A stretch of 64,000 bases of DNA from Geopseudomonas sagittaria (lineage in GTDB: Bacteria > Pseudomonadota > Gammaproteobacteria > Pseudomonadales > Pseudomonadaceae): NCBI RefSeq assembly GCF_900115715.1, contig NZ_FOXM01000003.1:248001-312000 (forward strand). Direction: 5' to 3'. Below, piece after piece: positions 27,628 to 53,321 of this stretch (its first letter is position 1; each line of letters opens with the position of its first letter). The notes under the pieces are model-generated. The model did not search any database, was not told where the DNA came from, and was given only the letters and a program-made list of their open reading frames with translations. The position numbers and the translations under genes are program-made.

Positions 27628-28809
27628 TCAGTAGAACGCCTGGATGCCGGTCTGCGCGCGGCCGAGGATCAGCGCGTGGATGTCGTGGGTGCCCTCGTAG
27701 GTGTTGACCACCTCGAGGTTGACCAGGTGGCGGGCCACGCCGAACTCGTCGCTGATGCCGTTGCCGCCCAGCATGTCGCGGGCCAGGCGGGCGATGTCCA
27801 GCGCCTTGCCGCAGCTGTTGCGCTTCATGATCGAGGTGATCTCCACCGCCGCAGTGCCCTCGTCCTTCATGCGGCCCAGGCGCAGGCAGCCCTGCAGGGC
27901 CAGGGTGATCTCGGTCTGCATGTCAGCCAGCTTCTTCTGGATCAGCTGGTTGGCGGCCAGCGGGCGGCCGAACTGCTGGCGGTCGAGGGTGTACTGGCGC
28001 GCGGTGTGCCAGCAGGCCTCGGCGGCGCCCAGTGCACCCCAGGCGATGCCGTAGCGCGCCGAGTTCAGGCAGGTGAACGGACCCTTGAGGCCGCGCACCT
28101 CGGGGAACACGTTCTCCTCGGGGACGAACACGTTGTCCATGACGATCTCGCCGGTGATCGAGGCGCGCAGGCCGACCTTGCCGTGGATCGCCGGGGCGCA
28201 CAGGCCCTGCCAGCCCTTCTCCAGCACGAAGCCGCGGATCTCCCCCGCGTCGTCCTTGGCCCACACCACGAACACGTCGGCGATCGGGCTGTTGGTGATC
28301 CACATCTTGCTGCCGGTCAGCCGGTAGCCGCCGTCGACCGTCCTGGCGCGGGTGATCATCGAGCCCGGGTCGGAGCCGTGGTTCGGCTCGGTCAGGCCGA
28401 AGCAGCCGATCCACTCGCCGCTGGCCAGCTTCGGCAGGTACTTCTGCCGGGTGGCCTCGTTGCCGAACTCGTTGATCGGCACCATCACCAGGGAGGACTG
28501 CACGCTGAGCATCGAGCGGTAGCCGGAGTCGATGCGCTCGACCTCGCGGGCGATCAGGCCGTAGCACACGTAGTTGAGGCCGCTGCCGCCGTACTCGACC
28601 GGGATGGTCGCGCCGAGCAGGCCGGTCTCGCCCATCTCGCGGAAGATCGCCGGGTCGGTGTGCTCGTGACGGAAGGCTTCCAGCACTCGCGGCGCCAGGC
28701 GGTCGGCGGCGAACTTGCGGGCGCTGTCCTGCACCATGCGCTCTTCTTCGCTGAGTTGCTGGTCGAGCAGCAGCGGATCTGCCCAGTTGAAGCTTGCCTT
28801 GTTGGCCAT
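27628..28809 (-). CDS. gcdH: Glutaryl-CoA dehydrogenase
   Basis: A 393-residue FAD acyl-CoA dehydrogenase of the glutaryl-CoA type, converting glutaryl-CoA to crotonyl-CoA and CO2 with electrons passed to ETF. The N-terminus [19 protein letters not shown] and the segment [17 protein letters not shown] are family hallmarks. The catalytic glutamate is in [10 protein letters not shown] near residue 370. The ATG at 28,809 is the family start; the upstream extension is spurious. It is the last gene of the minus-strand pimelate-type operon, 40 bp after the thiolase gene, and closes the route from pimeloyl-CoA to central metabolism. Confidence 0.95.
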
Positions 28810-28849
28810 GTCGGTAGTCCTCGGTATGGGTCTTGTTATGGGTATGGAT

Positions 28850-30052
28850 TCAATCGAGCCGTTCGATGACGCAGGCGATGCCCTGCCCCAGGCCGATGCA
28901 CAGGCTGACCAGCGCATGGCGCCCGCCGGTGCGTTCCAGCTGGCGCAGCGCGGTCAGCGCCAGGCGTGCACCGGAGGCGCCCAGCGGGTGGCCGAGAGCG
29001 ATGGCGCCGCCATTGGGGTTGAGGCGCGGGTCGTCCCAGGCCAGGCCCAGCTCGCGGGTGCAGCCGAGCACCTGGGCAGCGAAGGCCTCGTTGATCTCGA
29101 TCACGTCCATGTCGCCCAGGGTCAGGCCGCTGCGCTGCAGCGTCTTGCGGATCGCCGGCACCGGACCGAGGCCCATCAGCCGCGGCTCCACCCCGGCGAT
29201 GGCGCCGGCGAGGATGCGCGCCCGCGGCTGGCACTCGAAGCGCTCGCCGATGGCCTTGGAGCCGATCAGCAGCGCCGCGGCGCCATCGTTGACCCCGGAG
29301 GCATTGCCGGCGGTGACCACGCCACCTTCGAACAGCGGGTTCAGCCGCGACAGCGCCGCGAAGGTGCTTTCCGGACGCGGATGCTCGTCGCTCGCCACCA
29401 CCTTCGGCGGCTGCTTGCGGCCCTGCGTCACCTCGATGGGCAGGATCTCGCCGCTGTAGAAGCCCGCCGCGGCGGCCGCGGCATACAGCTGCTGGCTGCG
29501 CGCAGCATAGCGGTCGGCCGCCTCGCGGCTGATGTTTAGCGCTTGCGCCACGTTGTCGGCGGTTTCCGGCATTGAGTCGGCGCCGAACTCGGCCTCCACC
29601 CGCGGGTTGGCGAAGCGCGCACCGATGGTGCTGTCGAACACGCGCAGCTCGCGGGCGTAGGGGCTTTCGCTCTTGGCCAGCACGAAGGGCGCGCGGCTCA
29701 TGCTTTCCACGCCGCCGACTACGAACAGCTCGCCCTCGCCGGTACGCACGGCGCGCGCGGCATCCAGCACCGCCGCCAGTCCTGAGCCGCACAGACGGTT
29801 GACGGTGAGACCACCCACCGACAACGGCAAGCCGGACAACAGGCCGACATGCCGCGCCACGTTGCGCGCGTCCTCGCCGGCCTGGTTGGTGCAGCCGGCG
29901 ACGATGTCCTCGTAGACCTCGCCGGTGAACGGATTGCGCGCCACCAGGGCGCGGACCACGCTGGCCAGCAGGTCGTCCGGGCGCAGCGAGGCCAGGGCAC
30001 CGGCATAGCGGCCGAAGGGCGAACGCAGGCCGTCATAGATGTAGGCAGTCAT
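28850..30052 (-). CDS. Acetyl-CoA acyltransferase (thiolase), dicarboxylyl type
   Basis: A 400-residue thiolase II-fold enzyme. The nucleophilic cysteine is in [11 protein letters not shown] (residue about 90), with [10 protein letters not shown] histidine and C-terminal CIGLGQGIA cysteine. It resembles PcaF/PaaJ beta-ketoadipyl-CoA thiolases. In this operon its likely substrate is 3-oxopimeloyl-CoA, giving glutaryl-CoA and acetyl-CoA, the PimB role. The ATG at 30,052 overlaps the stop of the upstream dehydrogenase by 4 bp (ATGA), showing tight coupling. A true beta-ketoadipyl-CoA function cannot be excluded, but no other beta-ketoadipate gene is near. Confidence 0.9.
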
Positions 30053-31572
30053 GCCGATGGCTCCTGATCTTCCGGGGTGGTGAGCGGCAGGCCGAGCTGC
30101 ACGCGCCGACGCAGCCACGGGCTGACCCGGTAGCGCGGCTCCTGATACTGCTCGTGCAACTCATGGAGGATCTGCTCGACGCGGGCCGCGCCAAACTGCT
30201 CGCCAAAGCCGAGCGGGCCATGGGGATAGCCCAGCGCCAGCTGCACGGCGCGATCGAGCACCGCCGGGCTGGCGATGCGCCGCTGGGCGATCTCGCAGCC
30301 GAGGTTGACGATGACGGCCAGCACGCGCTGGGCGACGAAGCCGGGCGAGTCGTTGATCACTTCCACCGGCACGCCATCGGCGCCCAGCGCCTGACGGGCC
30401 TGGGCCAGCAGCTGCGGGTCGAGCCCCGGCTGGCGCATCAGCACACGGCGCGTGGCGAAGCCGGCGAGGGTTTCCAGCGCCAGACTGCGCGCGGCGGGCA
30501 GCTGCTGGCGGGCAATGCAGCTGCTGGCGTCCTCGCCCAGCGGGGTGACCAGGCAGATGGCCTGCGCCGAGGGCTGGGCGCCCTCCTCCAGCACCGCGCC
30601 GGCGGCGGCCAGCACCGCGGCGACCTGCCCGCGCACCTGTGGATCGCGGCTGTCCAGCCAGAACGGCCGCTCGATGGCCACCGGCGCCGGGGCCGGCTCG
30701 GCCTCGTGCTGGATCTGGCCGTCGACGTAACGGTAGAAACCCTCGCCGCTCTTGCGCCCCAGCAGGCCGGCGGCCAGGCGCGGCGCCACCAGGTAGGACG
30801 GCGTGTAGCGCGGATCCTGGTAGAACTGCTGGTACACCGATTCCATCACCGCCTGGGTGACATCCAGGCCGATCAGGTCGAGCAGCTCGAACGGCCCCAT
30901 GCGAAAGCCCAGGCTGTCGCGCAGGATGCGATCGATCTGCGCCGGCGTGGCCACGCCCTCGGCGAGGATGCGCAGCGCCTCGGTGCCGTAGGCTCGGCCG
31001 GCGTGGTTGACCAAGAAGCCGGGGGTATCCGGGGTGCTCGCCGGGAAGTGCCCGGCCTGCTCGGCCAGCGCCGCCAGACGGCGGATCACCGCCGGGTCGG
31101 TACGCTCGCCGCGCACCACCTCGACGATCTTCATCAGCGGCACCGGGTTGAAGAAATGGAAACCGGCGACCCGCTCGGGGTGCCGGCAGCCGCTGGCGAT
31201 GCGGGTCACCGACAGCGACGAGGTGTTGGTGGCCAGTACCGCATCGGCGGCGACCAGCGCCTCCAGCTCGCGGAACAGCGCCTGCTTGGCCTCGAGGTTC
31301 TCGACGATGGCCTCGATCAGCAGGTCGCAGTCGGCCAGTTCCGCCAGGCTTGCCGCCGGGCGCAGGCGCGCCAGGGTCGCCTCGAGCTGCTCGGGGCTCA
31401 GCCGGCCCTTGGCCGCCGCGCGCTCGAGCGTCTCGCGGTTATAGGCCAGCGCCTGGTCGATGGCCTCGCTGCGGCTGTCATGCAGCAGCACCTCGACCCC
31501 GGCGGTGGCGAACAACTGGGCAATGCCACGCCCCATCGCACCACTGCCGATCACGCCAATTCGTTTGAACAT
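30049..31572 (-). CDS. 3-hydroxyacyl-CoA dehydrogenase, PaaH/PaaC-type
   Basis: A 507-residue NAD-dependent enzyme with a Rossmann domain at the start ([15 protein letters not shown]), the [10 protein letters not shown] and [17 protein letters not shown] signatures, and two 3HCDH C-terminal domains (the second from about residue 410 begins [11 protein letters not shown]). The length and duplication match PaaH-type enzymes that oxidise 3-hydroxy dicarboxylyl-CoA esters. Here 3-hydroxypimeloyl-CoA is the logical substrate. It lies between the etf genes and the thiolase gene in one operon. Confidence 0.9.
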
Positions 31573-31628: not shown

Positions 31629-32573
31629 TCAGAGCTGGCGCTCCAGCTCGGGAACCGCCTCGAACAGGTCGCCGACCAGGCCGTAGTCGGCGACCTGGAA
31701 GATCGGCGCCTCCTCGTCCTTGTTGATCGCCACGATGACCTTGGAGTCCTTCATGCCGGCCAGGTGCTGGATCGCCCCGCTGATGCCGACGGCGAGGTAC
31801 AGCTGCGGCGCGACGATCTTGCCGGTCTGGCCGACCTGCATGTCGTTGGGCACGAAGCCGGCGTCCACCGCCGCGCGCGAGGCGCCGACCGCGGCGCCGA
31901 GCTTGTCGGCCACGCTGTAGAGCAGCTGGAAGTTTTCGCCGTTCTGCATGCCGCGACCGCCGGAGACGATGATCTTGGCGGCGGTCAGCTCCGGGCGTTC
32001 GGACTTGGCGATCTCCTCGCCGACGAAGCGGGAGATGCCGGCATCGGTGACGCTGGCGATGGTCTCGATGCTGGCCGAGCCACCGCTGGCGGCCACGGCG
32101 TCGAAGCCGGTGCCGCGTACGCTGATCACCTTCACGGTGGCCGAAGACTGCACGGTGGCGATGGCGTTGCCGGCATAGATCGGCCGCTGGAAGGTATCCG
32201 GCGCGATGACCCTGACGATCTCGGAGATCTGGTCGACGTCGAGCAGCGCGGCGACGCGCGGCAGCAGGTTCTTACCGTTGGTGGTGGCCGGGGCCAGCAC
32301 GTGGCTGTAGGCGGCCGGCGAGGTCCCGCAGACCAGCTCGGCCACCAGCGGGGCGAGGTTCTCCGCCAGCTGGTGGGCGTAGGCGGCGTGGTCGGCGACC
32401 AGCACCTTGGCCACCCCGGCGACCTTGGCGGCGGCCTCGGCCACGGCTCCGCAGTTAGCGCCAGCGACCAGCAGGTGGATGTCGCCACCGATCTGTTGCG
32501 CCGCAGCCACGGTGTTCAGGGTGGCGCCGGCCAGGGCGGCGTTGTCGTGCTCGGCAATGACGAGAATGGCCAT
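31629..32573 (-). CDS. etfA: Electron transfer flavoprotein alpha subunit
   Basis: A 314-residue ETF-alpha. The N-terminal domain starts [10 protein letters not shown], and the C-terminal FAD domain has the family signature around [17 protein letters not shown] and [22 protein letters not shown]. With EtfB it collects electrons from the acyl-CoA dehydrogenases coded in this island and passes them to ETF-ubiquinone oxidoreductase, which is not in the window. Its start shares one base with the etfB stop (TGATG). Confidence 0.95.
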
Positions 32574-33322
32574 CAGATCACCTTCGCTTCGTTCTTGAGT
32601 TTGTCGACCAGCTCGGCGACCGAGCCCACCTTGATGCCGGCACTGCGCGTGGCCGGTGCCTCGACCTTGAGTACCTTCACCGTGGAGGCGACGGACACGC
32701 CCAGCGCCTCCGGGGTCAGCACGTCGAGCGGCTTCTTCTTGGCCTTCATGATGTTGGGCAAGGAGGCGTAGCGCGGTTCGTTGAGGCGCAGGTCGGTGGT
32801 GACGATGGCCGGCAGCTTGAGGGCGACGGTCTGCAGGCCGCCGTCGATCTCGCGGGTGACGTTGAGCTGGTCGCCGGCGACTTCCACCTTGGAGGCGAAG
32901 GTGCCCTGGGCGAAGCCGGTCAGTGCGGCGAGCATCTGCCCGGTCTGGTTGTTGTCGCTGTCGATGGCCTGCTTGCCGAGGATGACCAGCTGCGGCTGTT
33001 CCTGGTCGACCACGGCCTTGAGCAGCTTGGCCACCGCCAGCGAGTTCAGCTCGTCGTTGGACTCGACCAGCACGGCGCGGTCGGCGCCGAGGGCCAGGGC
33101 GGTGCGCAGCTGTTCCTGGGCAGCGTTGCTGCCGATGCTGACCACCACCACTTCGCTGGCCACGCCCTTCTCTTTCAGGCGCACGGCTTCTTCCACGGCG
33201 ATCTCGCAGAAGGGGTTCATCGCCATCTTGACGTTGGCGAGGTCGACGCCGGAGCCGTCCGCCTTGACGCGGACCTTGACGTTGTAGTCGACCACTCGTT
33301 TTACCGCGACCAGTATCTTCAT
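32573..33322 (-). CDS. etfB: Electron transfer flavoprotein beta subunit
   Basis: A 249-residue ETF-beta with the typical [20 protein letters not shown] start, the GADRAVLVE motif that binds AMP, and the [22 protein letters not shown] region ending in the ETF-beta recognition loop. It binds AMP and docks with acyl-CoA dehydrogenases. It is 29 bp downstream of the small acyl-CoA dehydrogenase gene. Its placement inside the catabolic operon suggests an ETF pair dedicated to ring-acid and pimelate degradation in addition to a housekeeping pair elsewhere. Confidence 0.95.
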
Positions 33323-33351
33323 CTTGTTGTCCTCAGGTCTTCGGATGGAAT

Positions 33352-34494
33352 TCAGGCGCTGTGCAGCAGTTCGGAGTAAGCCTGCAGGTGATGGTCGTCG
33401 TCGCCCAGCTGGTGGCTGAGCATCACCAGGCGCTTGGCGTGGTGGGCCAGGCTGTATTCCCAGGTCATGCCGATGCCGCCGTGCAGCTGGATCGCCTGCT
33501 CGGCGATGAAGCGCGCGGCGCGGGTGACGATGAACTTGGCGGCGGCCAGGCGCCGGCTGCGCTCCAGGCTGTCGGCCTGGTCAGCCACACAGGCGGCGAG
33601 GATGGCCATGGAGGTGGCCAGCTCCAGTTCGGTGCGCATGTCGACCATGCGGTGCTGCAGGGCCTGGAACTTGCCGATCGGCGCGCCGAACTGCTGGCGG
33701 GTCTTCAGGTAGTCGAGGGTCAGCTGGCAGGCCTCCTGCATGCTGCCGATGGCCTCGGCGCACTGGGCGGCGATGGCGCGGCCCTGCTGGTAGCGCAGCG
33801 CCGCCAGCGCCTGGCCCGGCTCGCCGAGCAGGTCGCTGTCGCGCACCAGCACGCGGTCGAGCAGCAGGTCGCAGGCCTTCGGCCCGTCGATGGTCGGGTA
33901 GACCCGGCGGCTCAGCCCTTCGGCCTGGGCGTCGACCAGGAACAGCGAGATGCCCTGCTCGTCGCGCGCCGCGCCGCGGGTGCGGGCCGATACCAGCAGC
34001 ATCCTGGCGCTGTGCCCGCCGATCACCACCACCTTGCGTCCGCTCAGCTCCCAGCCGCCGTCGACCCGCTCGGCGCGGGTCTGCACGTCGTGCAGGTGGT
34101 AGTGGCTCTGGCGCTCCTCGAGGGCGACTGCCAGCTGCAGCTCGCCGCTGGTCACCACCGGCAGCAGGCGTTCGTGCTGCTCGGCGTTGCCCAGCTGCTG
34201 CAGCAGGCCGCCGGCGTGGATCTGCGACTGCAGGTAGGGCTCCAGGCACAGGCCGCGGCCCAGCTCGGTCATGATCAGCATGTTGTCCACGCCACTGCCG
34301 CCGAAGCCGCCGTGGGCCTCGCTGAAGGGCACGCCGCAGAGGCCCAGCTCGCCCAGCTGCTGCCAGAACTCGCGGCTGAAACCCGCCTCGCTGCGGTAGA
34401 AATGCTCGCGCTGCTCGAAGCCGTAGCTGTCGCGCACCAGACGGGCCACGGTATCCTGCAACATCTGCTGCTCTTCGGTCAATTTGAAGTCCAT
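33352..34494 (-). CDS. pimD: Acyl-CoA dehydrogenase, pimeloyl-CoA dehydrogenase small-subunit type
   Basis: A 380-residue acyl-CoA dehydrogenase-fold protein starting [19 protein letters not shown]. The C-terminal region has [20 protein letters not shown] but lacks the usual YEGT catalytic-base motif, as expected for the non-catalytic or half-site subunit of heteromeric enzymes. The partner is coded 11 bp upstream. Such adjacent large/small pairs are known as PimC/PimD of Rhodopseudomonas palustris and in actinobacterial steroid degradation. I take the ATG at 34,494; a much longer frame upstream is out-of-frame reading of the partner gene. Confidence 0.8.
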
Positions 34495-34505
34495 GGGGTG
34501 CTCTC

Positions 34506-35687
34506 CTACAGATCGAGGATCATCTTGGAGATGATGTTCTTCTGGATTTCGTTGGAGCCGCCGTAGATCGACAGCTTGCGCAGGTTGAAGTACTGGCTGG
34601 CCGGGCCGGCGCAGTAGTCGCCGTGCAGCGGCGCGCCAGCGAAGGCCGGGGCCAGCTCGTCCTCGAGGAACGGCAGCGCGCAGGGGCCGATGACCTTGCG
34701 CAGCAGGTGGCTGATCGCCTGGCGGATTTCCGAGCCCTTGATCTTGAGGATCGAGCTTTCCGCGCCCGGCACGCCGCCGGCCTGGGCGGCGGCGAGGATG
34801 CGCAGGGTGCTGACCTCGATGGCCAGCAGCTGCATCTCCACTTCGGCGATCTGCGCGCGCAGCAGCGGGTCGGCGAGGCGCCCCTCGCGGGCGGCGACCT
34901 GCTTGAGGTGGGCCAGCGCGGCCTTGGAGATGCCGATGCCGGCCTGGCCGGTGCGCTCGTGGGTGAGCAGGTACTTGGCGCAGGTCCAGCCCTGGTTCTC
35001 CTCGCCGACCAGGTTGCCCACCGGCACCCGCACGTTGTCGAAGAACACCTCGTTGACTTCGTGCTCGCCGTCCAGGGTGATGATCGGCCGCACGCTGATG
35101 CCGGGGCTGGCCATGTCGATCAGCAGGAAGGAGATGCCGCGCTGCTGCTGGGCCTGCGGGTCGGTGCGCACCAGGCAGAAGATCCAGTTGGCGTGCTGGC
35201 CGAGGGTGGTCCAGGTCTTCTGGCCGTTGACCACGTAGTGATCGCCCTCGCGCACCGCGCGGGTCTTCAGCGAGGACAGGTCGGAGCCGGCGCCCGGCTC
35301 GGAGTAGCCCTGGCACCACCAGTCGCTGCCGTCGAGGATGCGCGGCAGGTAGTGGGCCTTCTGCTCGGCGCTGCCGAACTTGATGATCACCGGGGCGACC
35401 ATGTTGACGCCGAAGGAGATCAGCCGCGGCGCACCGAAGGCGGCGCACTCCTCCTCGAAGATGTGTTTCTGCACCACGCTCCAGCCGGTGCCGCCGAACT
35501 CCACCGGCCAGTTGGCGGCATACCAGCCGCGGGTATTGAGGATGCGCTGCCAGCGCTGGTGGTCGTCCTTGCCGAGATGCTTGCCGAGGCGCACCCGCTC
35601 GGCGATGTCCGCGGGCAGTTCGGCGCGCAGGAACTCGCGCACCTGGTCGCGGAAGGCGAGTTCTTCCGCGCTGTAGTTGATGTCCAT
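34506..35687 (-). CDS. pimC: Acyl-CoA dehydrogenase, pimeloyl-CoA dehydrogenase large-subunit type
   Basis: A 393-residue acyl-CoA dehydrogenase with FAD-binding segments CQGYSEPGAGSDLSSL and KTWTTLGQHANWIF. The C-terminal motif reads YGGSNEIQKNII, with glycine where short-chain enzymes have the catalytic glutamate, so the base must come from elsewhere, as in other heteromeric relatives. It starts at 35,687 (MDINYSAEELAFRDQ) after a GAGGAG site. Together with the downstream small subunit it probably oxidises pimeloyl-CoA to 2,3-didehydropimeloyl-CoA. Confidence 0.82.
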   Translation of the reverse strand: MDINYSAEELAFRDQVREFLRAELPADIAERVRLGKHLGKDDHQRWQRILNTRGWYAANWPVEFGGTGWSVVQKHIFEEECAAFGAPRLISFGVNMVAPVIIKFGSAEQKAHYLPRILDGSDWWCQGYSEPGAGSDLSSLKTRAVREGDHYVVNGQKTWTTLGQHANWIFCLVRTDPQAQQQRGISFLLIDMASPGISVRPIITLDGEHEVNEVFFDNVRVPVGNLVGEENQGWTCAKYLLTHERTGQAGIGISKAALAHLKQVAAREGRLADPLLRAQIAEVEMQLLAIEVSTLRILAAAQAGGVPGAESSILKIKGSEIRQAISHLLRKVIGPCALPFLEDELAPAFAGAPLHGDYCAGPASQYFNLRKLSIYGGSNEIQKNIISKMILDL

Positions 35688-37574: not shown

Positions 37575-37603
37575 AGAATAGTCCCGCTCAAAATTAAAGA
37601 CAA
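37575..37603 (-). promoter_or_regulatory. Sigma-70-type promoter of the badK-gcdH operon
   Basis: On the minus strand, TTGTCT (37,603-37,598) and TATTCT (37,580-37,575) are separated by 17 bases in a locally AT-rich stretch. The predicted transcript would have a leader of about 125 nt before badK. Confidence 0.65.
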
Positions 37604-37610
37604 CATGTTG
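37601..37610. promoter_or_regulatory. Candidate operator between divergent catabolic promoters
   Basis: The perfect 10-bp palindrome CAACATGTTG overlaps the -35 boxes of both divergent promoters. A dimeric MarR protein bound here would block both operons, and a MarR gene lies in the plus operon at 42,275. The pairing of site and regulator is inferred. Confidence 0.5.
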
Positions 37611-37637
37611 ACATATTAAAATTGCAGGGCTTATCTT
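37608..37637 (+). promoter_or_regulatory. Sigma-70-type promoter of the aliA operon
   Basis: TTGACA at 37,608-37,613 (perfect -35) and TATCTT at 37,632-37,637 are separated by 18 bases. The aliA start chosen here lies about 60 bp downstream. Confidence 0.68.
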
Positions 37638-45666: not shown

Positions 45667-45674
45667 TCGGTCAG

Positions 45675-45720: not shown

Positions 45721-46608
45721 ATGACAACAATATTCGGTGTACCTCTGGCAGCAATGTTCGGCCAGCTGTTGCTGGGCCTGATCAACGGCGCGTTCTACGC
45801 GCTCCTGAGTCTGGGGCTGGCAGTCATCTTCGGTCTGCTGCGCATCATCAACTTCGCCCATGGCGTGCAGTACATGCTGGGCGCCTTCAGCGCAATGCTG
45901 TTGCTGAAGTTTCTCGGTGTTGGCTACTGGACGACTCTGCTTCTGGCGCCCCTGCTGGTCGGCACCCTGGGGATCCTGATCGAGCGCCTGCTGCTGCGCC
46001 GCATCGCGCATCTGGATCATCTCTACGGCCTGCTGCTGACGTTCGGCCTGGCCATGATCATCGAGGGTAGCTTCATCAACCTGTTCGGCGTGTCCGGCAG
46101 CAGCTATCCGATCCCGGAGGCGCTGCAGGGCGGCTTCAAGCTGGGCTTCATGTTCCTGCCGACCTACCGCGTCTGGGTCCTGGTGGCGGGCCTGGGGATG
46201 TGCTTGTTCACCTGGTACATGATCGAGAAGACCCGTCTGGGCGCCTACATGCGGGCCGGCACCGAGAAGCCGCAACTGATGCAGGCCTTCGGCGTCAACG
46301 TACCGCTGCTGACCACCCTGACCTACGGTTTCGGCGTGGCGCTGGCGGCCTTCGCCGGGGCTCTCGCCGCGCCCATCTACTCGGTGTCGCCAACCATGGG
46401 CTCGAACCTGCTGATCGTGGTGTTTGCCGTGGTGGTGATCGGCGGCATGGGTTCGATCATGGGCGCCATCATCACCGGTGTATCCATGGGTCTGATCGAG
46501 GGCCTGACCAAGGTGTACTGGCCCGAGTCGGCCAGCACCGTGATCTTCTTCGTGATGATCCTGGTCCTGCTGGTACGCCCCAACGGTCTGTTCGGTAAGG
46601 AGGCATAA
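45721..46608 (+). CDS. HAAT-type ABC importer permease, LivH-like
   Basis: A 295-residue inner-membrane permease with about eight hydrophobic helices. LivH signatures are GLINGAFYALLSLGLAVIFG near the start and FGVNVPLLTTLTYGFGVALA, then the loop ending AVVVIGGMGSIMGAIITG. It forms the transport channel with the LivM-like subunit. Its C-terminus reads VRPNGLFGKEA, the usual ending. Confidence 0.9.
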   Translation: MTTIFGVPLAAMFGQLLLGLINGAFYALLSLGLAVIFGLLRIINFAHGVQYMLGAFSAMLLLKFLGVGYWTTLLLAPLLVGTLGILIERLLLRRIAHLDHLYGLLLTFGLAMIIEGSFINLFGVSGSSYPIPEALQGGFKLGFMFLPTYRVWVLVAGLGMCLFTWYMIEKTRLGAYMRAGTEKPQLMQAFGVNVPLLTTLTYGFGVALAAFAGALAAPIYSVSPTMGSNLLIVVFAVVVIGGMGSIMGAIITGVSMGLIEGLTKVYWPESASTVIFFVMILVLLVRPNGLFGKEA

Positions 46609-46612
46609 GCCG

Positions 46613-47596
46613 ATGAATACCCAATCTGTGCTGACAATCACGCAACAACGCGAGATCGGCAAACAGCGCCAGATCAACGCACTATACATCGCGCTGATCG
46701 CCATCGGCCTGGTGGCGCCCTGGGTCGCCTACCCGGTGTTCCTGATGAAGCTGCTGTGCTTCGGCCTGTTCGCCTGCTCGTTCAACCTGCTGCTGGGCTA
46801 CACCGGACTGCTGTCGTTCGGCCACGCCGCCTTCCTCGCCGCCGGCGGCTACAGCACCGGCTACCTGCTGAGCCAGCACCCGGGCATCGGCCCGGAGCTG
46901 GCGATCATCGGCGGCACCCTGGCCGCGGCCCTGATCGGCGCGCTGTTCGGCGCCCTGGCCATTCGCCGCCAGGGTATCTATTTCGCCATGATCACCCTGG
47001 CCCTGTCGCAGATGCTGTACTTCCTGTTCCTCAAGGCGCCCTTCACCGGCGGCGAAGACGGACTGCACGGCATCACTCGCGGCAAGCTGCTGGGCTTCAT
47101 CGACCTGGCCGACGACCACGCCCTGTATTACTTCGTGCTGGCCATCGCCGTACTCGGCTTCGCCGTGGTACTGCGCGTGGTGCACTCGCCCTTCGGCCAG
47201 ATCCTCAATGCCATCCGCGAGAACGAGGATCGGGCCACCTCGCTGGGCTACAACATCAGCCGCTACAAGTGGCTGGCCTTCGTCATCTCCTCGGCCATTG
47301 CCGGCCTGGCCGGCTCCACCAAGGCCGTGGTGTTCCAGCTGGTGACCCTGACCGATGCGCACTGGCACATGTCCGGCGAAGTGGTGCTGATGACCCTGCT
47401 CGGTGGCGTCGGTACCCTGCTCGGCCCCTTCGTCGGCGCTGGCATCGTGGTTTCGCTGCAGCACCTGCTGGCAGGTTCGCCGCTGGGCACCTGGGGCACC
47501 TCGATCCTTGGCGGCATCTTCGTGCTCTGCGTGCTGTGCTTCCGCGCAGGCGTGGTTGGCTCGCTCAAGCTGCTGGTGAACAAGAACTTCAAGTGA
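46613..47596 (+). CDS. HAAT-type ABC importer permease, LivM-like
   Basis: A 327-residue permease partner. It starts 4 bp after the LivH-like gene with a TAAGGAGG site. LivM marks are NLLLGYTGLLSFGHAAFLAAGGY, the RRQGIYFAMITLALSQM segment and ENEDRATSLGYNISRYKWLAFV. About ten helices are visible. With it the five-part importer (two ATPases, receptor, two permeases) is complete. Confidence 0.9.
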   Translation: MNTQSVLTITQQREIGKQRQINALYIALIAIGLVAPWVAYPVFLMKLLCFGLFACSFNLLLGYTGLLSFGHAAFLAAGGYSTGYLLSQHPGIGPELAIIGGTLAAALIGALFGALAIRRQGIYFAMITLALSQMLYFLFLKAPFTGGEDGLHGITRGKLLGFIDLADDHALYYFVLAIAVLGFAVVLRVVHSPFGQILNAIRENEDRATSLGYNISRYKWLAFVISSAIAGLAGSTKAVVFQLVTLTDAHWHMSGEVVLMTLLGGVGTLLGPFVGAGIVVSLQHLLAGSPLGTWGTSILGGIFVLCVLCFRAGVVGSLKLLVNKNFK

Positions 47597-47628
47597 CACA
47601 AGTTAAATAACAAGATCAGGAAACGACC

Positions 47629-49581
47629 ATGACCAGCACAGCCGTTTGGACACCCAGCCAGGATTTCATCCAGCGCACTCGCCTGCATCAGTGGATGCAG
47701 GCCCTGGGCGAGAGCGACTACGAGACCTTCCTCGAGCGATCGACCAATGATCCGCGCTGGTTTGCCCAGGCCCTGGAGCAAGCCCTGGGCATCACTTGGG
47801 ACACGCCCTACCAGACCGCCCTGAATGACGCCGGCGGCATCAAGCACCCGCGCTGGTACGAAGGCGGCCAGTTGAACATCATTCGCTCCGCCCTGGAGCG
47901 CTGGGCCGCCGATCCGGTCCAGGCCCAGCGCCCGGCGCTGATCTGGGAGAGCGAGGACGGGCAGATCGTCGAAGCCAGCTACGGCGAACTCGCCCGCCGG
48001 GTGAACAACGTGGCCCAGGGCCTGGTTGAACTGGGCGTGGAGCCCGGCGACCGCGTCGCCATCTACATGCCGCTGCTGATCGAGACCGTGGTCGCTCTGC
48101 TGGCGGTGGTCAAGCTCGGCGCCATCTTCACCCCGGCCTTCTCCGGCTATGCCGCCGAAGCCCTGGCCACCCGCCTGGAGGCCAGCGGCGCCAAGCTGCT
48201 GATCACCGCCGACGGCTTCCTGCGCCGCGGCAAGACCATCCGCATGAAGGAGGAAGCCGACCGGGCCGCCGCCCTCTGCCCGGGTCTGGAAAAGGTGGTG
48301 GTGGTGCGCCGCCTCGGTCGCGATATCCCCTGGAACGCCGAGCGCGACCTCGATTTCGCCAGCCTGGAAAGCTGCGACGGCAGCCAGTGCGCGACCGCGG
48401 TGGTCGACAGCCAGGCACCGCTGATGCTCATCTACACCTCCGGCACCACCGGCAAGCCCAAGGGCGCGGTGCACACCCACAGCGGCTTCCCGCTCAAGGC
48501 CGCGCTGGACGTTGGCCTGTGCATGGACGTCGGCCAGAACGATCGGCTGTTCTGGATCACCGACATGGGCTGGTTGACCGGCCCGGTGGTGGTGTTCGGC
48601 AGCCTGATCAATGGCGCCTGTGCCGTCCTCTACGAAGGCTCGCCGGACTTCCCGCAGGCGGACCGCGTCTGGCAGATCGGCACCCGGCACCGGGCCACCC
48701 ACATCGGCGTCTCGCCGACCCTGGTGCGCTCGCTGATGCAGCATGGCGACGCCATCGCCCAGGGCCACGACCTCGGCGCCCTGCGCACCTTCACCTCGAC
48801 CGGCGAACCGTGGAACCCGGAACCATGGTTGTGGCTGTTCGACACCGTGGGCAACGGCCGCTATCCGATCATCAACTACGCCGGCGGCACCGAGATCGGC
48901 GGCGGCATCCTCACCAACGTGCTGGTCAAGCCGATTTCGCCGGTGACCTTCAACAGCCGCATGCCGGGCATGGCCGCCCAGGTCTGCGACAGCCAGGGCC
49001 AAGCGGTGCAGCAGGCGCTGGGCGAACTGGCGATGACCCAGCCATGGATCGGCATGACCCACAGCTTCTGGCAGGAGCCGGAGCGCTACGAGAACTCCTA
49101 CTTCAACCGCTTTCCCGACACTTGGGTGCACGGCGACTGGGCGATCATCGATGCAGAAGGCTTCTGGACCATCACCGGCCGCTCCGACGACACCCTGAAC
49201 GTCGCCGGCAAGCGCATCGGTCCGGCGGAGATGGAGTCCATCCTGGTCAGCCATCCGCAGGTGCTCGAGGCCGGCGCCATCGGCGTCCCCGACGACATCA
49301 AGGGCGAGGCGCCAGTGTGCTTCGTGGTGCTGCACCCCGGCGTCCAGCCGAGCCCGGCGCTGGACAGCGAGCTGCGCGGGCTGATCGGCAACCGGCTGGG
49401 CAAGGCCATGGCGCCCAAGCACCTGCACTTCGTCAGCGAGCTGCCGAAGACCCGCAACGGCAAGGTCATGCGCCGGGTCATCCGCGCCGCCTACTTAGGC
49501 CAGGACACCGGCGACCTGTCGTCGCTGGAAAACACCGGCGCCCTCGGCGCCATCAGCCGCTGCCACCTCCAGGCGGCATGA
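47629..49581 (+). CDS. Acyl-CoA synthetase, acetyl/propionyl-CoA synthetase-like
   Basis: A 650-residue AMP-forming synthetase with the longer acetyl-CoA-synthetase layout. An N-terminal extension (residues 1-110) precedes the core: YTSGTTGKPKGAVHTH near residue 265, WITDMGWLTGP, YAGGTEIGGG, hinge GRSDDTLNVAGKRIGPAE and catalytic lysine in TRNGKVMRR. Being a second CoA ligase in the same operon, it may activate a side substrate such as an unsaturated or hydroxylated ring acid, or a short-chain acid. Nothing in the sequence fixes the substrate. Confidence 0.85.
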   Translation: MTSTAVWTPSQDFIQRTRLHQWMQALGESDYETFLERSTNDPRWFAQALEQALGITWDTPYQTALNDAGGIKHPRWYEGGQLNIIRSALERWAADPVQAQRPALIWESEDGQIVEASYGELARRVNNVAQGLVELGVEPGDRVAIYMPLLIETVVALLAVVKLGAIFTPAFSGYAAEALATRLEASGAKLLITADGFLRRGKTIRMKEEADRAAALCPGLEKVVVVRRLGRDIPWNAERDLDFASLESCDGSQCATAVVDSQAPLMLIYTSGTTGKPKGAVHTHSGFPLKAALDVGLCMDVGQNDRLFWITDMGWLTGPVVVFGSLINGACAVLYEGSPDFPQADRVWQIGTRHRATHIGVSPTLVRSLMQHGDAIAQGHDLGALRTFTSTGEPWNPEPWLWLFDTVGNGRYPIINYAGGTEIGGGILTNVLVKPISPVTFNSRMPGMAAQVCDSQGQAVQQALGELAMTQPWIGMTHSFWQEPERYENSYFNRFPDTWVHGDWAIIDAEGFWTITGRSDDTLNVAGKRIGPAEMESILVSHPQVLEAGAIGVPDDIKGEAPVCFVVLHPGVQPSPALDSELRGLIGNRLGKAMAPKHLHFVSELPKTRNGKVMRRVIRAAYLGQDTGDLSSLENTGALGAISRCHLQAA

Positions 49582-49596
49582 TCGGGGAGTATGCAC

Positions 49597-50355
49597 ATGA
49601 CTCAGACCGGCCGTACCGTCGTCGTCACCGGCGCCGCCCAGGGCATCGGCCTGGCGATTGCCCGGGCCTTCGCCGCCCAGGGTGATTTCGTGGCCCTGTG
49701 CGACATCAACCTGGCGGCGGCCGAACAGGCCGCCAGCCAGCTGCCCAATGCCCGCGCCTATGCCGTGGATGTCACCAGCGAGGCGCAGATCGCCGCCTTC
49801 TTTGCACAATTGCGGGAGGAACGGCCGGCCGTGGATGTGCTGGTCAACAATGCCGGGCTGCAGTACATCGCCCCCGTGCAGGACTTCCCGCTGGATCGGT
49901 GGAACACCCTGCTGGCGGTGATGCTCACCGGCCCGTTCCTGATGAGCAAGCACGCCCTGCCGAGCATGCTGGCGCAGCAGAGCGGACGCATCATCAACAT
50001 CGCCTCGGTGCACGGCAAGCTGGCCTCGCCCTACAAGAGCGCCTACATCGCCGCCAAGCATGGCCTGATCGGCCTGACCCGCACCCTGGCGCTGGAAACC
50101 GCCAACCAGGGCATCACCGCCAACGCCATCCTGCCCGGTGCGGTGCGCACCAGCCTGGTGGAGAAACAGCTGCCGCAACTGGCCGCCCAGGACGGCATCA
50201 GCGAGGAGGAGGCCCTGCAACAGCACATACTCGACCGCCAGCCGCTCAAGCGCCTGCTCGAGCCCAGCGAGATCGGCGACAGCGCGGTATTTCTTGCCTC
50301 CCACGCGGCGCGCGCCATCACCGGCGAATCGCTCAGCGTTGCCGGCGGCTGGTGA
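49597..50355 (+). CDS. Short-chain dehydrogenase, 3-hydroxybutyrate-dehydrogenase-like
   Basis: A 252-residue SDR. TGAAQGIG cofactor motif, acidic CDINL suggesting NAD, NNAGLQY, and catalytic S-YIAAK. The ending GESLSVAGGW and the insert SLVEKQLPQLAAQDGISEEEA follow D-3-hydroxybutyrate dehydrogenases. I chose the ATG at 49,597 because GGGGAG lies 7 bp before it and only 1 bp before the other ATG at 49,591. The neighbouring synthetase and MaoC-like genes suggest a small acyl or hydroxy-acid module. Confidence 0.82.
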   Translation: MTQTGRTVVVTGAAQGIGLAIARAFAAQGDFVALCDINLAAAEQAASQLPNARAYAVDVTSEAQIAAFFAQLREERPAVDVLVNNAGLQYIAPVQDFPLDRWNTLLAVMLTGPFLMSKHALPSMLAQQSGRIINIASVHGKLASPYKSAYIAAKHGLIGLTRTLALETANQGITANAILPGAVRTSLVEKQLPQLAAQDGISEEEALQQHILDRQPLKRLLEPSEIGDSAVFLASHAARAITGESLSVAGGW

Positions 50356-50360
50356 ACACC

Positions 50361-51125: not shown

Positions 51126-51283
51126 AACAACCAAGCAACTGCTGAACCCCTGACAGGCAGCGAACTTCGCCAGTTCACTGCACGGGCCGACTCATGCCCG
51201 AAAAAACATCGCGCAGCACGTGTTGCGCCAGCCGACTCAAGTGACGCAGTACCCGACCAACGACAACAACAAGAGGTTTGAAC

Positions 51284-52540
51284 ATGCTCAAGACATTCCC
51301 AGTACTTCCCCTGGCCCTCGCCATCGGCGCTGCCAGCGCCTCCGCACCGGCGCTGGCCGCCTTCGTCGAGGACAGCCAGCTGAACCTCAACGCGCGCAAC
51401 TTCTACATGAACCGCGACTTTCGCGACAACGCGGTCGGCAACCATAAGGCCGAGGAATGGGGCCAGGGCTTCATGCTGCGCTACAACTCGGGCTTCACCG
51501 AGGGCCCGCTGGGCTTTGGCGTCGACGGCCTCGGCCTGCTCGGCATCAAGCTGGACGGCGGCGATGGCACCGGCGGCGCCAACGTGCTGCCGCGCAACCG
51601 GGTAACCGGCGAGACGCCCGACGAGTGGAGCTTTCTCGGCCTGACCGGCAAGGCCAGGTTCGCCCAGAGCGTGCTCAGCGTCGGCACCCACGAGCCGCTG
51701 CTGCCGGTGGCCTATCGCAACGATACCCGCCTGCTGCCGCAGACCTTCGAGGGCGCGCAACTGGTATCGAAGGACATCGACAAGCTGACCCTGACCGCCG
51801 GCCAGTTCCGCAGCACCCGCCTGCGCGACTCGACCAACTACGAGGACATGAAAATGGCCGCCTTCGCCGAAGGCGGCGCCCTGGTCGGCGGTGGCGTGGA
51901 CAGCGACCGCTTCAACTATGCCGGCGCCAGCTACGCACCGCTGGCCAACCTGACGGCCAGCTACTTCTATGCCGAGCTGGAGGACAACTACCACCAGCAC
52001 TACGGCAACCTGCTGTACAGCCTGCCGCTGGCCGAAGGCATGACGCTGAAGACCGACATCCGCTACTTCGACAGCGGCGAGGAAGGCAACACCACGGTCG
52101 ACAACCGCAACCTCGGCGCCATGTTCACCCTCGCCTTCAAGGGCCATGCCTTCGGCGTCGCCTACCAGGACCAGAGCGGCGACACCGGCCTGCCCTTCAT
52201 CGCCGGCGGCACCGACCCCTGGGCGCTGAACACCGTGACCTACCACCACTTCCTGCGCGCCAGGGAGGACTCCTGGCAGGCCCGCTACGACTACGACTTC
52301 GCCGCCCTGGGGATGCCCGGCCTGACCCTGATGTCCCGCTACGTCAGCGGCGACAACTTCAAGATCGGCGGCGCCGAGGCGAAGGAATGGGAGCGCGATA
52401 TCGACCTCGGCTACGTGATCCAGAGCGGCCCGCTGAAGAACGTCGGCCTGCGCCTGCGCAACGTCGCCTATCGCGGCAGCCACACCACCGACATCGACGA
52501 GAACCGCGTCATCGTCAACTACACCGTCAAGCTCTGGTAA
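51284..52540 (+). CDS. OprD-family outer-membrane porin
   Basis: A 418-residue OprD/OccK-type 18-stranded beta-barrel. A signal peptide (residues 1-24, cleavage near ALAAF) is followed by the family N-terminus FVEDSQLNLNARNFYMNRD, and the protein ends in a C-terminal aromatic residue (VNYTVKLW), the BAM recognition signal. Members of this family pass small carboxylates, so a role as outer-membrane gate for ring acids fits its place at the end of the operon. AAGAGG precedes the ATG; the earlier TTG codon was not used. Confidence 0.93.
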   Translation: MLKTFPVLPLALAIGAASASAPALAAFVEDSQLNLNARNFYMNRDFRDNAVGNHKAEEWGQGFMLRYNSGFTEGPLGFGVDGLGLLGIKLDGGDGTGGANVLPRNRVTGETPDEWSFLGLTGKARFAQSVLSVGTHEPLLPVAYRNDTRLLPQTFEGAQLVSKDIDKLTLTAGQFRSTRLRDSTNYEDMKMAAFAEGGALVGGGVDSDRFNYAGASYAPLANLTASYFYAELEDNYHQHYGNLLYSLPLAEGMTLKTDIRYFDSGEEGNTTVDNRNLGAMFTLAFKGHAFGVAYQDQSGDTGLPFIAGGTDPWALNTVTYHHFLRAREDSWQARYDYDFAALGMPGLTLMSRYVSGDNFKIGGAEAKEWERDIDLGYVIQSGPLKNVGLRLRNVAYRGSHTTDIDENRVIVNYTVKLW

Positions 52541-52625
52541 GCCGCTGCGGCCTGGTCGCCCGGCCAGGCCGTCTCGCCGAGCAATAGCCGTCAGAACCAG
52601 GCCCTTCAGTCCGAGGAAAATCCGC

Positions 52626-53321
52626 ATGCACGTCGATCACGCGATCCGCTCCCGCAAGTCGGTACGCCGCTTCCTGCCCACCGGGGTCTCCCCGGAGGTG
52701 ATCCGCCACATCCTCGAGGTCGCCGCCCGCGCCCCCAGCGGCAACAACATCCAGCCCTGGCGCGTCTACGTGGTCAGCGGCGAGGTCCGCGAGGCGCTGT
52801 GCCGCGACATCCTGCAGGCGGCCAGCGAAAGCCCCGACCAGCATCAGGCCGAGTACAGCTACTACCCCACGCAGTGGGTCGAGCCCTATCGGGAGCGGCG
52901 CCGGCGCAACGGCTTCGCCCTCTACGAACAGCTCGGCATCGGCCGCGACGACCACCAGCGGCGCGAGCAGCAGATGCTGCGCAACTACCAGTTCTTCGAC
53001 GCCCCCGTCGGCCTGCTGGTGACCCTCGACCGCCGTCTCAACACCGGCAGCTACCTGGATGTCGGCATGTTCATCCAGAACATCCTGATCGCCGCCCGTG
53101 CCCAGCAACTGCACACCTGCGCCCAGGCCGCCTTCGCCCCCTTCCACGCCGTGGTGCGCCGCCACCTGCCGCTGGGCGAGGATGAGGTGCTGGTGTGTGG
53201 CATTGCCCTCGGCCATGGCGACAACGAGGCGCCGGAGAACTGGCTGCAGAGCGAGCGCCAGCCCGTCGAGGCGTTCGCCAGTTTCCATGGTTTCCGGGAA
53301 GCGCAGCGCGAGGCGTGCTGA
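52626..53321 (+). CDS. Nitroreductase-family flavoprotein
   Basis: A 231-residue FMN-dependent nitroreductase-fold protein. RSRKSVRRFLP and AARAPSGNNIQPWRVYVV form the FMN phosphate site, and GSYLDVGMFIQNILIAARA the central helix; the C-terminus has VLVCGIALGHGD. The substrate is not readable. Its place as last gene of the catabolic run may mean a side reduction or a housekeeping oxidoreductase that came with the island. AGGAAAA precedes the ATG. Confidence 0.82.
   Translation: MHVDHAIRSRKSVRRFLPTGVSPEVIRHILEVAARAPSGNNIQPWRVYVVSGEVREALCRDILQAASESPDQHQAEYSYYPTQWVEPYRERRRRNGFALYEQLGIGRDDHQRREQQMLRNYQFFDAPVGLLVTLDRRLNTGSYLDVGMFIQNILIAARAQQLHTCAQAAFAPFHAVVRRHLPLGEDEVLVCGIALGHGDNEAPENWLQSERQPVEAFASFHGFREAQREAC

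What the first reader, a model, noticed from the sequence alone, without database searches (positions are those of the whole stretch)
27628..53321. Putative complete aerobic cyclohexanecarboxylate-to-crotonyl-CoA catabolic island
The genes line up step by step: import (OprD plus HAAT ABC), AliA ligase, AliB dehydrogenase, BadK hydratase, BadH dehydrogenase, BadI ring opening to pimeloyl-CoA, PimC/D dehydrogenase, hydratase, 3-hydroxyacyl-CoA dehydrogenase, thiolase to glutaryl-CoA, and GcdH to crotonyl-CoA, with a dedicated ETF. The route is best known from the photosynthetic Rhodopseudomonas palustris. Finding all parts in two divergent operons in a Pseudomonas-type genome suggests naphthenic-acid degradation.
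Basis: partly seen in the sequence, partly recalled or inferred. Interest (0 to 1): 0.85.

Follow-up and report, generated by a model that had tools for sequence, protein, structure and literature searches.

The report
Pseudomonas gene cluster degrading cyclohexanecarboxylate
This stretch of a Pseudomonas chromosome carries a complete, already described kind of gene cluster for breaking down the ring acid cyclohexanecarboxylate, plus an unusual swapped-in cassette (transporter parts and three extra enzymes) that may let a second, related acid enter the same pathway.

Summary
Window 27628-53321 encodes a full bad-ali pathway (AliA, BadH, BadI, AliB, BadK) with a lower arm: PimC/PimD-like, hydratase, 3-hydroxyacyl-CoA dehydrogenase, thiolase, EtfAB, GcdH. 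A MarR gene and a BadR-type operator are present; the operator runs into a TTGACA -35 box here and in 44 of 44 comparable relatives. The core is not new: Sanz and Diaz (2022) proved such a cluster with and without oxygen in Aromatoleum and listed others in Pseudomonas, including P. sagittaria.

In P. linyingensis, whose flanking DNA is mostly 90% or more identical, a different binding protein/permease set stands there instead. The ligase-SDR-MaoC triad turned up in four genomes, each time beside bad-ali. Its ligase and SDR have lost a pocket tryptophan. My reading: it feeds a second acid, perhaps 2-hydroxycyclohexanecarboxylate or cyclohex-1-enecarboxylate, to BadI. This is inference; growth is untested.

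The parts
27628..28809 (-). gcdH, glutaryl-CoA dehydrogenase
   Evidence: 751 bits to solved glutaryl-CoA dehydrogenase 3eom; TYEGT motif present
28850..30052 (-). thiolase, proposed 3-oxopimeloyl-CoA thiolase (AabD/PimB role)
   Evidence: passes NF006001 3-oxoadipyl-CoA thiolase 670>622, fails pcaF 551<597; motifs NRLCGSG, GHPLG, CIGLGQG; C7 substrate inferred
30049..31572 (-). 3-hydroxyacyl-CoA dehydrogenase, 507 aa (AabC role)
   Evidence: NF006124 657>508, fails PaaH 423<669; 3HCDH_N and 3HCDH
31629..32573 (-). etfA, electron transfer flavoprotein alpha
   Evidence: ETF alpha models, all below their cut-offs
32573..33322 (-). etfB, electron transfer flavoprotein beta
   Evidence: ETF beta models, all below their cut-offs
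33352..34494 (-). pimD-like acyl-CoA dehydrogenase subunit
   Evidence: best hit TIGR03203 375 bits (cut-off 653), next 163
34506..35687 (-). pimC-like acyl-CoA dehydrogenase subunit
   Evidence: best hit TIGR03204 478 bits (cut-off 624), next 147
35735..36595 (-). enoyl-CoA hydratase (proposed 2,3-dehydropimeloyl-CoA hydratase, AabB role)
   Evidence: ECH_1; the 25 best NCBIfam models shown are all below cut-off; both Glu motifs GGGLE and LPEVKLG
36666..37442 (-). badK, cyclohex-1-enecarboxyl-CoA hydratase
   Evidence: enoyl-CoA hydratase NF004517 398.6>396; divergent from aliA in 44 of 79 loci
37601..37610 (.). BadR-type operator CAACATGTTG (CAAN4TTG)
   Evidence: only match in the 304-bp badK/aliA gap; present in 44 of 44 comparable loci
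37608..37637 (+). possible aliA promoter TTGACA-N18-TATCTT, -35 overlapping the operator
   Evidence: 2 promoter-like sites found in the region against 1.7 expected, so weak alone; TTGACA joined to the operator in 44 of 44 loci
37705..39372 (+). aliA, cyclohexanecarboxylate-CoA ligase (start 37705 or 37747)
   Evidence: TIGR03208 731.6 bits, cut-off 792.3
39434..40201 (+). badH, 2-hydroxycyclohexanecarboxyl-CoA dehydrogenase
   Evidence: TIGR03206 365 bits, cut-off 431, next best 211
40218..41000 (+). badI, 2-ketocyclohexanecarboxyl-CoA hydrolase (ring opening)
   Evidence: TIGR03210 466.1 bits, cut-off 467.6; next MenB models 368 and 329
41064..42203 (+). aliB, cyclohexanecarboxyl-CoA dehydrogenase
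   Evidence: TIGR03207 612.5>575.4
42275..42775 (+). MarR regulator, proposed BadR
   Evidence: MarR domains; with the four core genes in 68 of 79 loci
42898..43656 (+). livG-type ABC ATPase
   Evidence: role read from the translation, not run against a family library; 94% identical in P. linyingensis
43649..44371 (+). livF-type ABC ATPase
   Evidence: role read from the translation, not run against a family library; 90% identical in P. linyingensis
44428..45666 (+). HAAT-type periplasmic binding protein, swapped cassette
   Evidence: Peripla_BP_6; 66% to P. linyingensis but 86% to P. fluorescens PS833
45721..46608 (+). livH-type permease, swapped cassette
   Evidence: role read from the translation; 70% versus 89%, same comparison
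46613..47596 (+). livM-type permease, swapped cassette
   Evidence: role read from the translation; 66% versus 87%, same comparison
47629..49581 (+). acetyl-CoA-synthetase-family ligase with opened acyl pocket (W413-W414 to A-G)
49591..50355 (+). D-3-hydroxybutyrate-dehydrogenase-like SDR with A for W187 and H for L215
50361..51125 (+). MaoC / hydratase-2-like double hotdog protein
   Evidence: Pfam FAS1_DH_region and MaoC; GDxNxxH kept; model matches enoyl-CoA hydratase 2 and other MaoC-type structures
51278..52540 (+). OprD-family outer-membrane porin
   Evidence: PF03573 473 bits
52626..53321 (+). nitroreductase-family protein, linked gene of unknown role
   Evidence: PF00881; near the cluster in 22 of 79 loci

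Best explanation
This is a bad-ali-aab-type catabolic island for cyclohexanecarboxylate (CHC). AliA makes CHC-CoA, AliB desaturates it, BadK hydrates it, BadH oxidises it, and BadI opens the ring to pimeloyl-CoA. The PimC/PimD pair (electrons to EtfAB), a hydratase, a 3-hydroxyacyl-CoA dehydrogenase and a thiolase give acetyl-CoA and glutaryl-CoA, and GcdH gives crotonyl-CoA and CO2. A BadR-like MarR protein represses aliA, and probably the divergent badK operon, from an operator that overlaps the likely aliA -35 box; CHC-CoA would relieve it, as shown for Aromatoleum BadR. Shown here: gene content, gene order, family assignments, catalytic motifs, and an operator joined to TTGACA that is conserved. 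Inferred: the substrates of each enzyme in this strain, that this MarR protein is the one that binds the site, growth on CHC, and uptake by OprD and the ABC transporter. An accessory cassette (binding protein, LivH, LivM, ligase, SDR, MaoC) appears to have been exchanged into the island and most likely handles a second acid that joins the same pathway.
For: Families. The four core genes are in 70 of 79 loci, 67 in the window's order. The operator CAAN4TTG occurs once in the 304-bp divergent gap, where about 0.03 would be expected (arithmetic), in 44 of 44 comparable loci, and in all 44 it is followed at once by an exact TTGACA. Functional precedent and prior listing of Pseudomonas clusters: PMC9795900. 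The own genome has no HGD-D (PF06050) protein (that this family covers class I benzoyl-CoA reductase is recalled, and other types were not searched) and no ChcB2 above cut-off (best 205 of 350), so that anaerobic aromatic route and one marker of the 4-hydroxybenzoate route were not found. Cassette swap.
Against: AliA, BadH, BadI, PimC and PimD fall below the curated NCBIfam cut-offs, BadI by only 1.5 bits. The thiolase model that passes is named for 3-oxoadipyl-CoA, and the more specific thiolase and HAD models fail. The strict CIB operator is absent. The number of promoter-like sites in the region is no more than chance (2 against 1.7). MarR is not divergent as is usual in the Gram-negative clusters described by Sanz and Diaz. 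The loci are relatives, so 44 of 44 is not 44 independent events. No expression or growth data for this strain were seen in any call.
Confidence: 0.9

Rival explanations
1. The core is a CHC pathway, but the ABC transporter, ligase, SDR and MaoC form an unrelated ketone-body module: import of (R)-3-hydroxybutyrate or a similar short acid, oxidation by the SDR, activation of acetoacetate by the ligase, thiolysis by housekeeping enzymes.
For: The SDR is in the 3-hydroxybutyrate dehydrogenase family (308.7 bits, over the NF009093 cut-off of 258; TIGR01963 304.6, just under 307) and keeps Q94, H144, K152 and Q196. The ligase resembles acetyl/acetoacetyl-CoA synthetases, though under the cut-off of each of the 25 models shown. 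A more distant ligase (44%) on a Rhodococcus ruber plasmid has MaoC, SDR and thiolase genes near it with no bad-ali annotated, so such enzyme sets also occur apart from bad-ali.
Against: W187 and L215, present in the solved enzyme 1wmb and in the genome's own copy, are A and H in 4 of 4 triad SDRs. The genome already has a canonical HBDH (344 bits, over the TIGR01963 cut-off) beside what looks like a GntP-type permease, a label recalled and not searched. The four triads found all sit beside bad-ali.
Confidence: 0.3
2. The lower operon is a general dicarboxylate (adipate/pimelate) beta-oxidation cluster that only happens to adjoin bad-ali.
For: The thiolase passes a 3-oxoadipyl-CoA thiolase model. 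Sanz and Diaz note that multiple dicarboxylate clusters are common.
Against: GcdH is needed for odd-chain acids such as pimelate, not for adipate (established biochemistry); the operon diverges from the bad operon across one shared operator; pimC- and pimD-like genes lie near bad-ali in 31 of 79 loci.
Confidence: 0.1
3. BadI is really MenB and the SDR/hydratase genes are ordinary beta-oxidation genes, so there is no ring-opening pathway.
For: BadI and MenB are close relatives; MenB models score 329-368 bits and solved MenB-type chains are the best PDB hits.
Against: The BadI model scores about 98 bits above the best MenB model, and the MenB models are below cut-off. AliB passes its equivalog. 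The four-gene order recurs in 67 of 79 loci.
Confidence: 0.02

Closest known systems
bad-ali-aab cluster of Aromatoleum sp. CIB (Sanz and Diaz 2022, PMC9795900)
   Same: Same enzymes from CHC to pimeloyl-CoA, CAAN4TTG operator, MarR regulator, adjacent lower pathway; proven aerobically and anaerobically there.
   Different: CIB has divergent aliA-badK and aliB-badH-badI operons; here badH-badI-aliB follow aliA and badK diverges, with MarR last on the same strand. Pimeloyl-CoA dehydrogenase looks like a PimC/PimD pair where CIB has aabA. An ABC transporter, OprD and the ligase-SDR-MaoC cassette stand beside it.
Pseudomonas bad-ali clusters listed in the Figure 6 legend of PMC9795900 (P. silesiensis, P. 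fluorescens, P. sagittaria, TCU-HL1) and Azotobacter beijerinckii
   Same: Same kind of cluster; the A. beijerinckii locus (L010) and the five P. fluorescens loci fetched here share the core order with the window.
   Different: The swapped cassette is absent from L010 and from four of the five P. fluorescens loci (L011, L012, L018, L063); it is present in PS833 (L020). The figure itself could not be seen, only its legend, so what it draws around the P. sagittaria cluster is unknown to me.
Rhodopseudomonas palustris bad-ali and pim genes
   Same: Same reactions; PimC/PimD-type pair.
   Different: Single operon with divergent badR in R. palustris (as described in PMC9795900); PimC and PimD here are below the cut-offs of the models. 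No R. palustris sequence was compared directly.
D-3-hydroxybutyrate dehydrogenase (PDB 1wmb) and acetyl-CoA synthetase (PDB 2p20)
   Same: Family of the SDR and of the ligase; carboxylate-binding residues of the SDR (roles recalled).
   Different: Pocket residues W187, L215 and W414 replaced.

Membership tests
bad-ali cluster (CHC to pimeloyl-CoA) | AliB, cyclohexanecarboxyl-CoA dehydrogenase | tested here: met
   TIGR03207 612.5 bits, cut-off 575.4
bad-ali cluster (CHC to pimeloyl-CoA) | AliA, BadH and BadI at equivalog level | tested here: inconclusive
   Each model is the best hit of its protein but the score lies below the curated cut-off: 731.6/792.3, 365.2/431.2, 466.1/467.6
bad-ali cluster (CHC to pimeloyl-CoA) | BadK hydratase present | tested here: met
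   Enoyl-CoA hydratase with both Glu motifs at 36666-37442; same place in 44 of 79 loci; no BadK-specific model was among the hits shown
bad-ali cluster (CHC to pimeloyl-CoA) | MarR-type gene and CAAN4TTG operator in the divergent region | tested here: met
   MarR domain; operator 37601-37610, 44 of 44 relatives
bad-ali cluster (CHC to pimeloyl-CoA) | Strict operator CAATnnATTG of strain CIB | tested here: not met
   0 matches in the window; CIB tests found substitutions at positions 3 or 4 without significant loss of binding
bad-ali cluster (CHC to pimeloyl-CoA) | Growth on CHC lost on badHI deletion | not testable with these tools
   needs an experiment
pim/aab lower pathway | Pimeloyl-CoA dehydrogenase PimC/PimD at equivalog level | tested here: not met
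   478 of 623.9 and 375.4 of 652.7 bits; best hits nevertheless
pim/aab lower pathway | Glutaryl-CoA dehydrogenase with EtfAB | tested here: met
   751 bits to 3eom; EtfA/EtfB-like genes on the same strand in the same block, below model cut-offs
D-3-hydroxybutyrate dehydrogenase (for the cassette SDR) | NCBIfam 3-hydroxybutyrate dehydrogenase models | tested here: inconclusive
   over NF009093 (308.7/258), just under TIGR01963 (304.6/307), under NF009931 (244.6/340)
D-3-hydroxybutyrate dehydrogenase (for the cassette SDR) | Q94, H144, K152, Q196 (numbering of 1wmb) | tested here: met
   alignment, counted by hand; 4 of 4; residue roles recalled
D-3-hydroxybutyrate dehydrogenase (for the cassette SDR) | W187 and L215 at the methyl end of the substrate | tested here: not met
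   A and H in 4 of 4; both kept in the own-genome HBDH and in 1wmb and 5yss; roles recalled
acetate--CoA ligase (for the cassette ligase) | Trp414 closing the acyl pocket | tested here: not met
   Gly in 4 of 4; role of Trp414 from PMC6122825 and PMC10455477, passages only; also under the AcsA cut-off, 571/725

The most novel reading that the evidence does not exclude
The exchanged cassette is a second, stereochemically opposite entry branch into the ring-opening step. Its transporter brings in a related acid, and the ligase, MaoC (hydratase-2 type, R-specific) and HBDH-like SDR (R-specific) convert cyclohex-1-enecarboxylate or free 2-hydroxycyclohexanecarboxylate to 2-oxocyclohexanecarboxyl-CoA for BadI, bypassing AliA, AliB, BadK and BadH. 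Bad-ali islands would then gain or lose substrate range by swapping binding-protein/permease/enzyme cassettes between conserved ATPase and porin genes.
Probability: 0.25. Interest if true: 0.5.

Novelty: new variant of a known kind. Interest (0 to 1): 0.33.

Why it matters
The core adds to the evidence that this oxygen-independent ring-opening route is common in gammaproteobacteria such as Pseudomonas, Marinobacter and Halomonas, and it shows a repressor logic (operator joined to the -35 box) kept across the 44 loci examined. The cassette exchange, if it does set a second substrate, would show how such islands change diet by a single recombination, and it gives a concrete enzyme set to test on alicyclic acids other than CHC. 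The same core on a Marinobacter salarius plasmid that MOB-suite predicts to be conjugative shows one way it could spread.

Tried and rejected
Plasmid megablast of 24.9 kb of the island: the best record covers 13% of it in one place. The strict CIB operator CAATnnATTG: none in the window. The cassette ligase as plain acetate-CoA ligase: below the AcsA cut-off and Trp414 lost; the own genome has one other match within the 1e-60 limit, 37% identical, not identified. MarR as HpaR: 54 bits against a cut-off of 121. Ligase relatives in plasmids: 188 records at E of 1e-100 or better, all below 60% identity; I opened one neighbourhood (Rhodococcus ruber): acyl-CoA dehydrogenases, two MaoC genes, SDR and thiolase genes but no bad-ali annotated, so no substrate clue and a mild argument against exclusivity. 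Paper searches for an R. palustris solute-binding protein with cyclohexanecarboxylate (0 papers), 2-hydroxycyclohexanecarboxylate or cyclohex-1-enecarboxylate with bacteria, cyclohexanecarboxyl-CoA with Pseudomonas, ABC transporter and HBDH and HBDH with Trp187 (0 papers) gave nothing used. Two papers on Pseudomonas and naphthenic acids (PMC8289671, PMC8540809) appeared in the listing and were not opened. The binding protein's best solved relatives, 3i09 and 3n0w, are named only as branched-chain amino-acid family binding proteins, so the ligand stays open.

Mended: 67 of the 70 core-bearing loci share the window's order; locus L051 is not among the 14 with a lone binding protein; L032 ends before any MarR gene; three, not two, low-identity steps lie in the right flank.
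Full report
WHAT IS THERE. ORF and start analysis gives a minus-strand block from 37442 down to 27628: badK, a second enoyl-CoA hydratase, pimC-like, pimD-like, etfB, etfA, a 507-residue 3-hydroxyacyl-CoA dehydrogenase, a thiolase and gcdH. A plus-strand block runs from 37705 to 53321: aliA, badH, badI, aliB, marR, livG, livF, binding protein, livH, livM, an acetyl-CoA-synthetase-family ligase, an SDR, a MaoC protein, OprD and a nitroreductase-family protein. The Liv names of the two ATPases and two permeases, and the nirB-type gene that follows, were read from the translations and not run against a family library.

FAMILY TESTS. NCBIfam: AliB passes its equivalog (612.5 against 575.4). AliA (731.6/792.3), BadH (365.2/431.2), BadI (466.1/467.6), PimC (478/623.9) and PimD (375.4/652.7) are each matched best by the expected model but below cut-off. 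The thiolase passes NF006001 (670/622, named 3-oxoadipyl-CoA thiolase) and fails pcaF (551/597); the HAD passes NF006124 (657/508) and fails PaaH (423/669); BadK passes a general enoyl-CoA hydratase model (398.6/396). GcdH passes no NCBIfam model but matches solved glutaryl-CoA dehydrogenase 3eom at 751 bits. Both hydratases keep the two glutamate motifs (roles recalled). BadI is close to MenB, but the BadI model exceeds the best MenB model by about 98 bits. Scores below cut-off count against strict naming. They may reflect models tuned on R. palustris (inference): the functional CIB proteins are themselves only 51-63% identical to R. palustris (PMC9795900, section 17 read).

GENE ORDER ELSEWHERE. 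A scan of genome contigs with AliB found 85 relatives and kept 79 distinct loci, a sample limited to close relatives. Nearest are P. linyingensis (98%) and Azotobacter beijerinckii (95%). With flanks of at most 10 kb, aliA, badH, badI and aliB are all in 70 of 79 loci, 67 in the window's order; with MarR 68, BadK 44, PimC and PimD 31, GcdH 18, OprD 17, nitroreductase 22, EtfA and EtfB 13, all five ABC genes 10, and a binding protein without other ABC genes 14 (40% identity or more, partial matches counted). At least 63 of 79 have 9.9 kb or more downstream of AliB. GcdH lies about 12 kb from aliB in this layout, so its count is a lower bound. The same core lies on plasmid pHL2708Z5 of Marinobacter salarius, predicted conjugative by MOB-suite. 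In the window's genus 2 of 8 genomes, own included, have AliB at E of 1e-150 or better.

REGULATION. PMC9795900 (outline and abstract, passages, and sections 17, 19, 21 and 22 read; figures not seen) reports that Aromatoleum BadR binds CAATnnATTG, tolerates substitutions at positions 3 or 4, responds to CHC-CoA, and that CAAN4TTG lies between divergent operons in most Gram-negative clusters. Here the strict form is absent, but CAACATGTTG lies at 37601-37610. It is the only CAAN4TTG in the 304-bp badK/aliA gap; 3 matches occur in the whole window against 6.65 expected by shuffling, so the pattern is not enriched overall and about 0.03 would be expected in that gap (and arithmetic). All 44 loci with a divergent badK/aliA pair carry a match, and in all 44 it runs straight into an exact TTGACA; TTG elsewhere in those gaps reaches 5 or more of 6 in 35 of 136 cases. 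In the window it overlaps a promoter-like match, TTGACA-18-TATCTT, 10 of 12; the region holds 2 such matches against 1.7 expected. A repressor sitting on the -35 box is the natural reading. The 44 loci are relatives, not independent cases.

WHAT IS KNOWN. Literature searches lead to one key paper, PMC9795900. It shows loss of CHC growth in a badHI deletion under oxic and anoxic conditions and reports growth on CHC of P. putida KT2440 and other hosts with a bad-ali-aab plasmid (abstract and Figure 9 legend passage). Its Figure 6 legend lists group 3 as P. silesiensis, P. fluorescens, P. sagittaria, Pseudomonas sp. TCU-HL1 and A. beijerinckii. P. sagittaria and P. linyingensis are sister species by recall, so this window's cluster or a near twin may already be in that figure. 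The terms 'transport', 'badJ', 'OprD' and 'MaoC' have no occurrence in its main text. I did not find the cassette described in searches; the library lacks most subscription journals.

THE CASSETTE. Against P. linyingensis (L009) the DNA is 86-97% identical from 33300 to 41999 in 300-base steps and 88-99% from 42275 to 44274 in 100-base steps, then drops to 33-70%. From about 51350 it is mostly 84-96%, with three steps at 70-73%. Between these points the window has binding protein, livH, livM, ligase, SDR and MaoC. L009 has a different binding protein, livH and livM (66-70% protein identity), with the OprD gene next after livM. The window cassette resembles P. fluorescens PS833 (L020): 80-89% DNA from 44675 to 50374, falling to 57-71% over MaoC, while its livG and livF are 75-79% identical to L020 at protein level against 90-94% to L009. 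This is the signature of a cassette exchange; no tree or recombination test was run. The triad is in 3 of 79 loci: PS833, P. profundi and P. saliphila. At 1e-200 it is in 1 of 390 sampled genomes of the order and 1 of 369 of the class, each time the own genome only. The four triads known from these calls all adjoin bad-ali.

WHAT THE CASSETTE MAY DO. The SDR aligns over its length with D-3-hydroxybutyrate dehydrogenase 1wmb, keeps Q94, H144, K152 and Q196, and in 4 of 4 members has A for W187 and H for L215 (numbering by hand count, roles recalled). The genome's own canonical HBDH (C22, 344 bits) keeps both. The ligase has A-G in place of W413-W414 of acetyl-CoA synthetase in 4 of 4; W414 limits acyl size and is Gly in medium-chain enzymes (PMC6122825 and PMC10455477, passages read). 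MaoC keeps GDxNxxH. Its model (pLDDT 80, from four sequences; two of the five models much lower) matches enoyl-CoA hydratase 2 structures best (E 4e-17, TM about 0.75, 18% identity), with HtdX and itaconyl-CoA hydratase also among the hits, so the substrate is not fixed by fold. A ligase, an R-type hydratase and an R-type dehydrogenase mirror AliA, BadK and BadH with opposite expected stereochemistry (recalled from the families). The product, 2-oxocyclohexanecarboxyl-CoA, would enter at BadI. Against this: HBDH-type enzymes act on free acids, not CoA esters (recalled), so the order of steps is unclear; 3-hydroxybutyrate or another beta-hydroxy acid remains possible; a more distant ligase keeps company with MaoC and SDR genes away from bad-ali; and MaoC is much less conserved (53-64%) than ligase and SDR (80-90%).

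VERDICT. The transport claims are guesses. The exchanged cassette is the new part, and its function is a testable inference.

Noticed in passing
window 41064-42203; AliB of 75 loci: AliB has IGDGT where GcdH here has TYEGT, so the base at the usual catalytic Glu position of acyl-CoA dehydrogenases (recalled) may be Asp; seen in 75 of 75 AliB matches with over 90% coverage, the other 4 of 79 loci being left out.
   Followed up: partly
L023, L042, L054, L055, L057-L060, L062, L064, L065, L067, L070, L086: In 14 of 79 loci (11 Halomonas/Billgrantia/Vreelandella, 3 Marinobacter) a relative of the HAAT binding protein lies near the cluster while no related ATPase or permease gene was matched in the stretch held.
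   Followed up: no
L024, L029, L032, L048: In Marinobacter L024 and L029 the ABC genes lie between aliB and MarR; in L032 they follow aliB and the contig then ends; in L048 they follow MarR on the opposite strand. This suggests repeated independent recruitment of a transporter.
   Followed up: no
L100 (Marinobacter salarius plasmid pHL2708Z5): A badK-aliA-badH-badI-aliB-marR core on a plasmid predicted to be conjugative, with transposase genes several kb away.
   Followed up: partly
window 53566-53599: A terminator-like hairpin (15 pairs plus T tract) sits ahead of the downstream nirB-like gene (8 terminator-like sites in the region against 9.5 expected), possibly an antitermination leader of nitrate assimilation (recalled, not tested).
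   Followed up: no
window 26535-27350: An alpha/beta hydrolase of the PcaD/esterase kind lies downstream of gcdH on the same strand; all NCBIfam models below cut-off.
   Followed up: no
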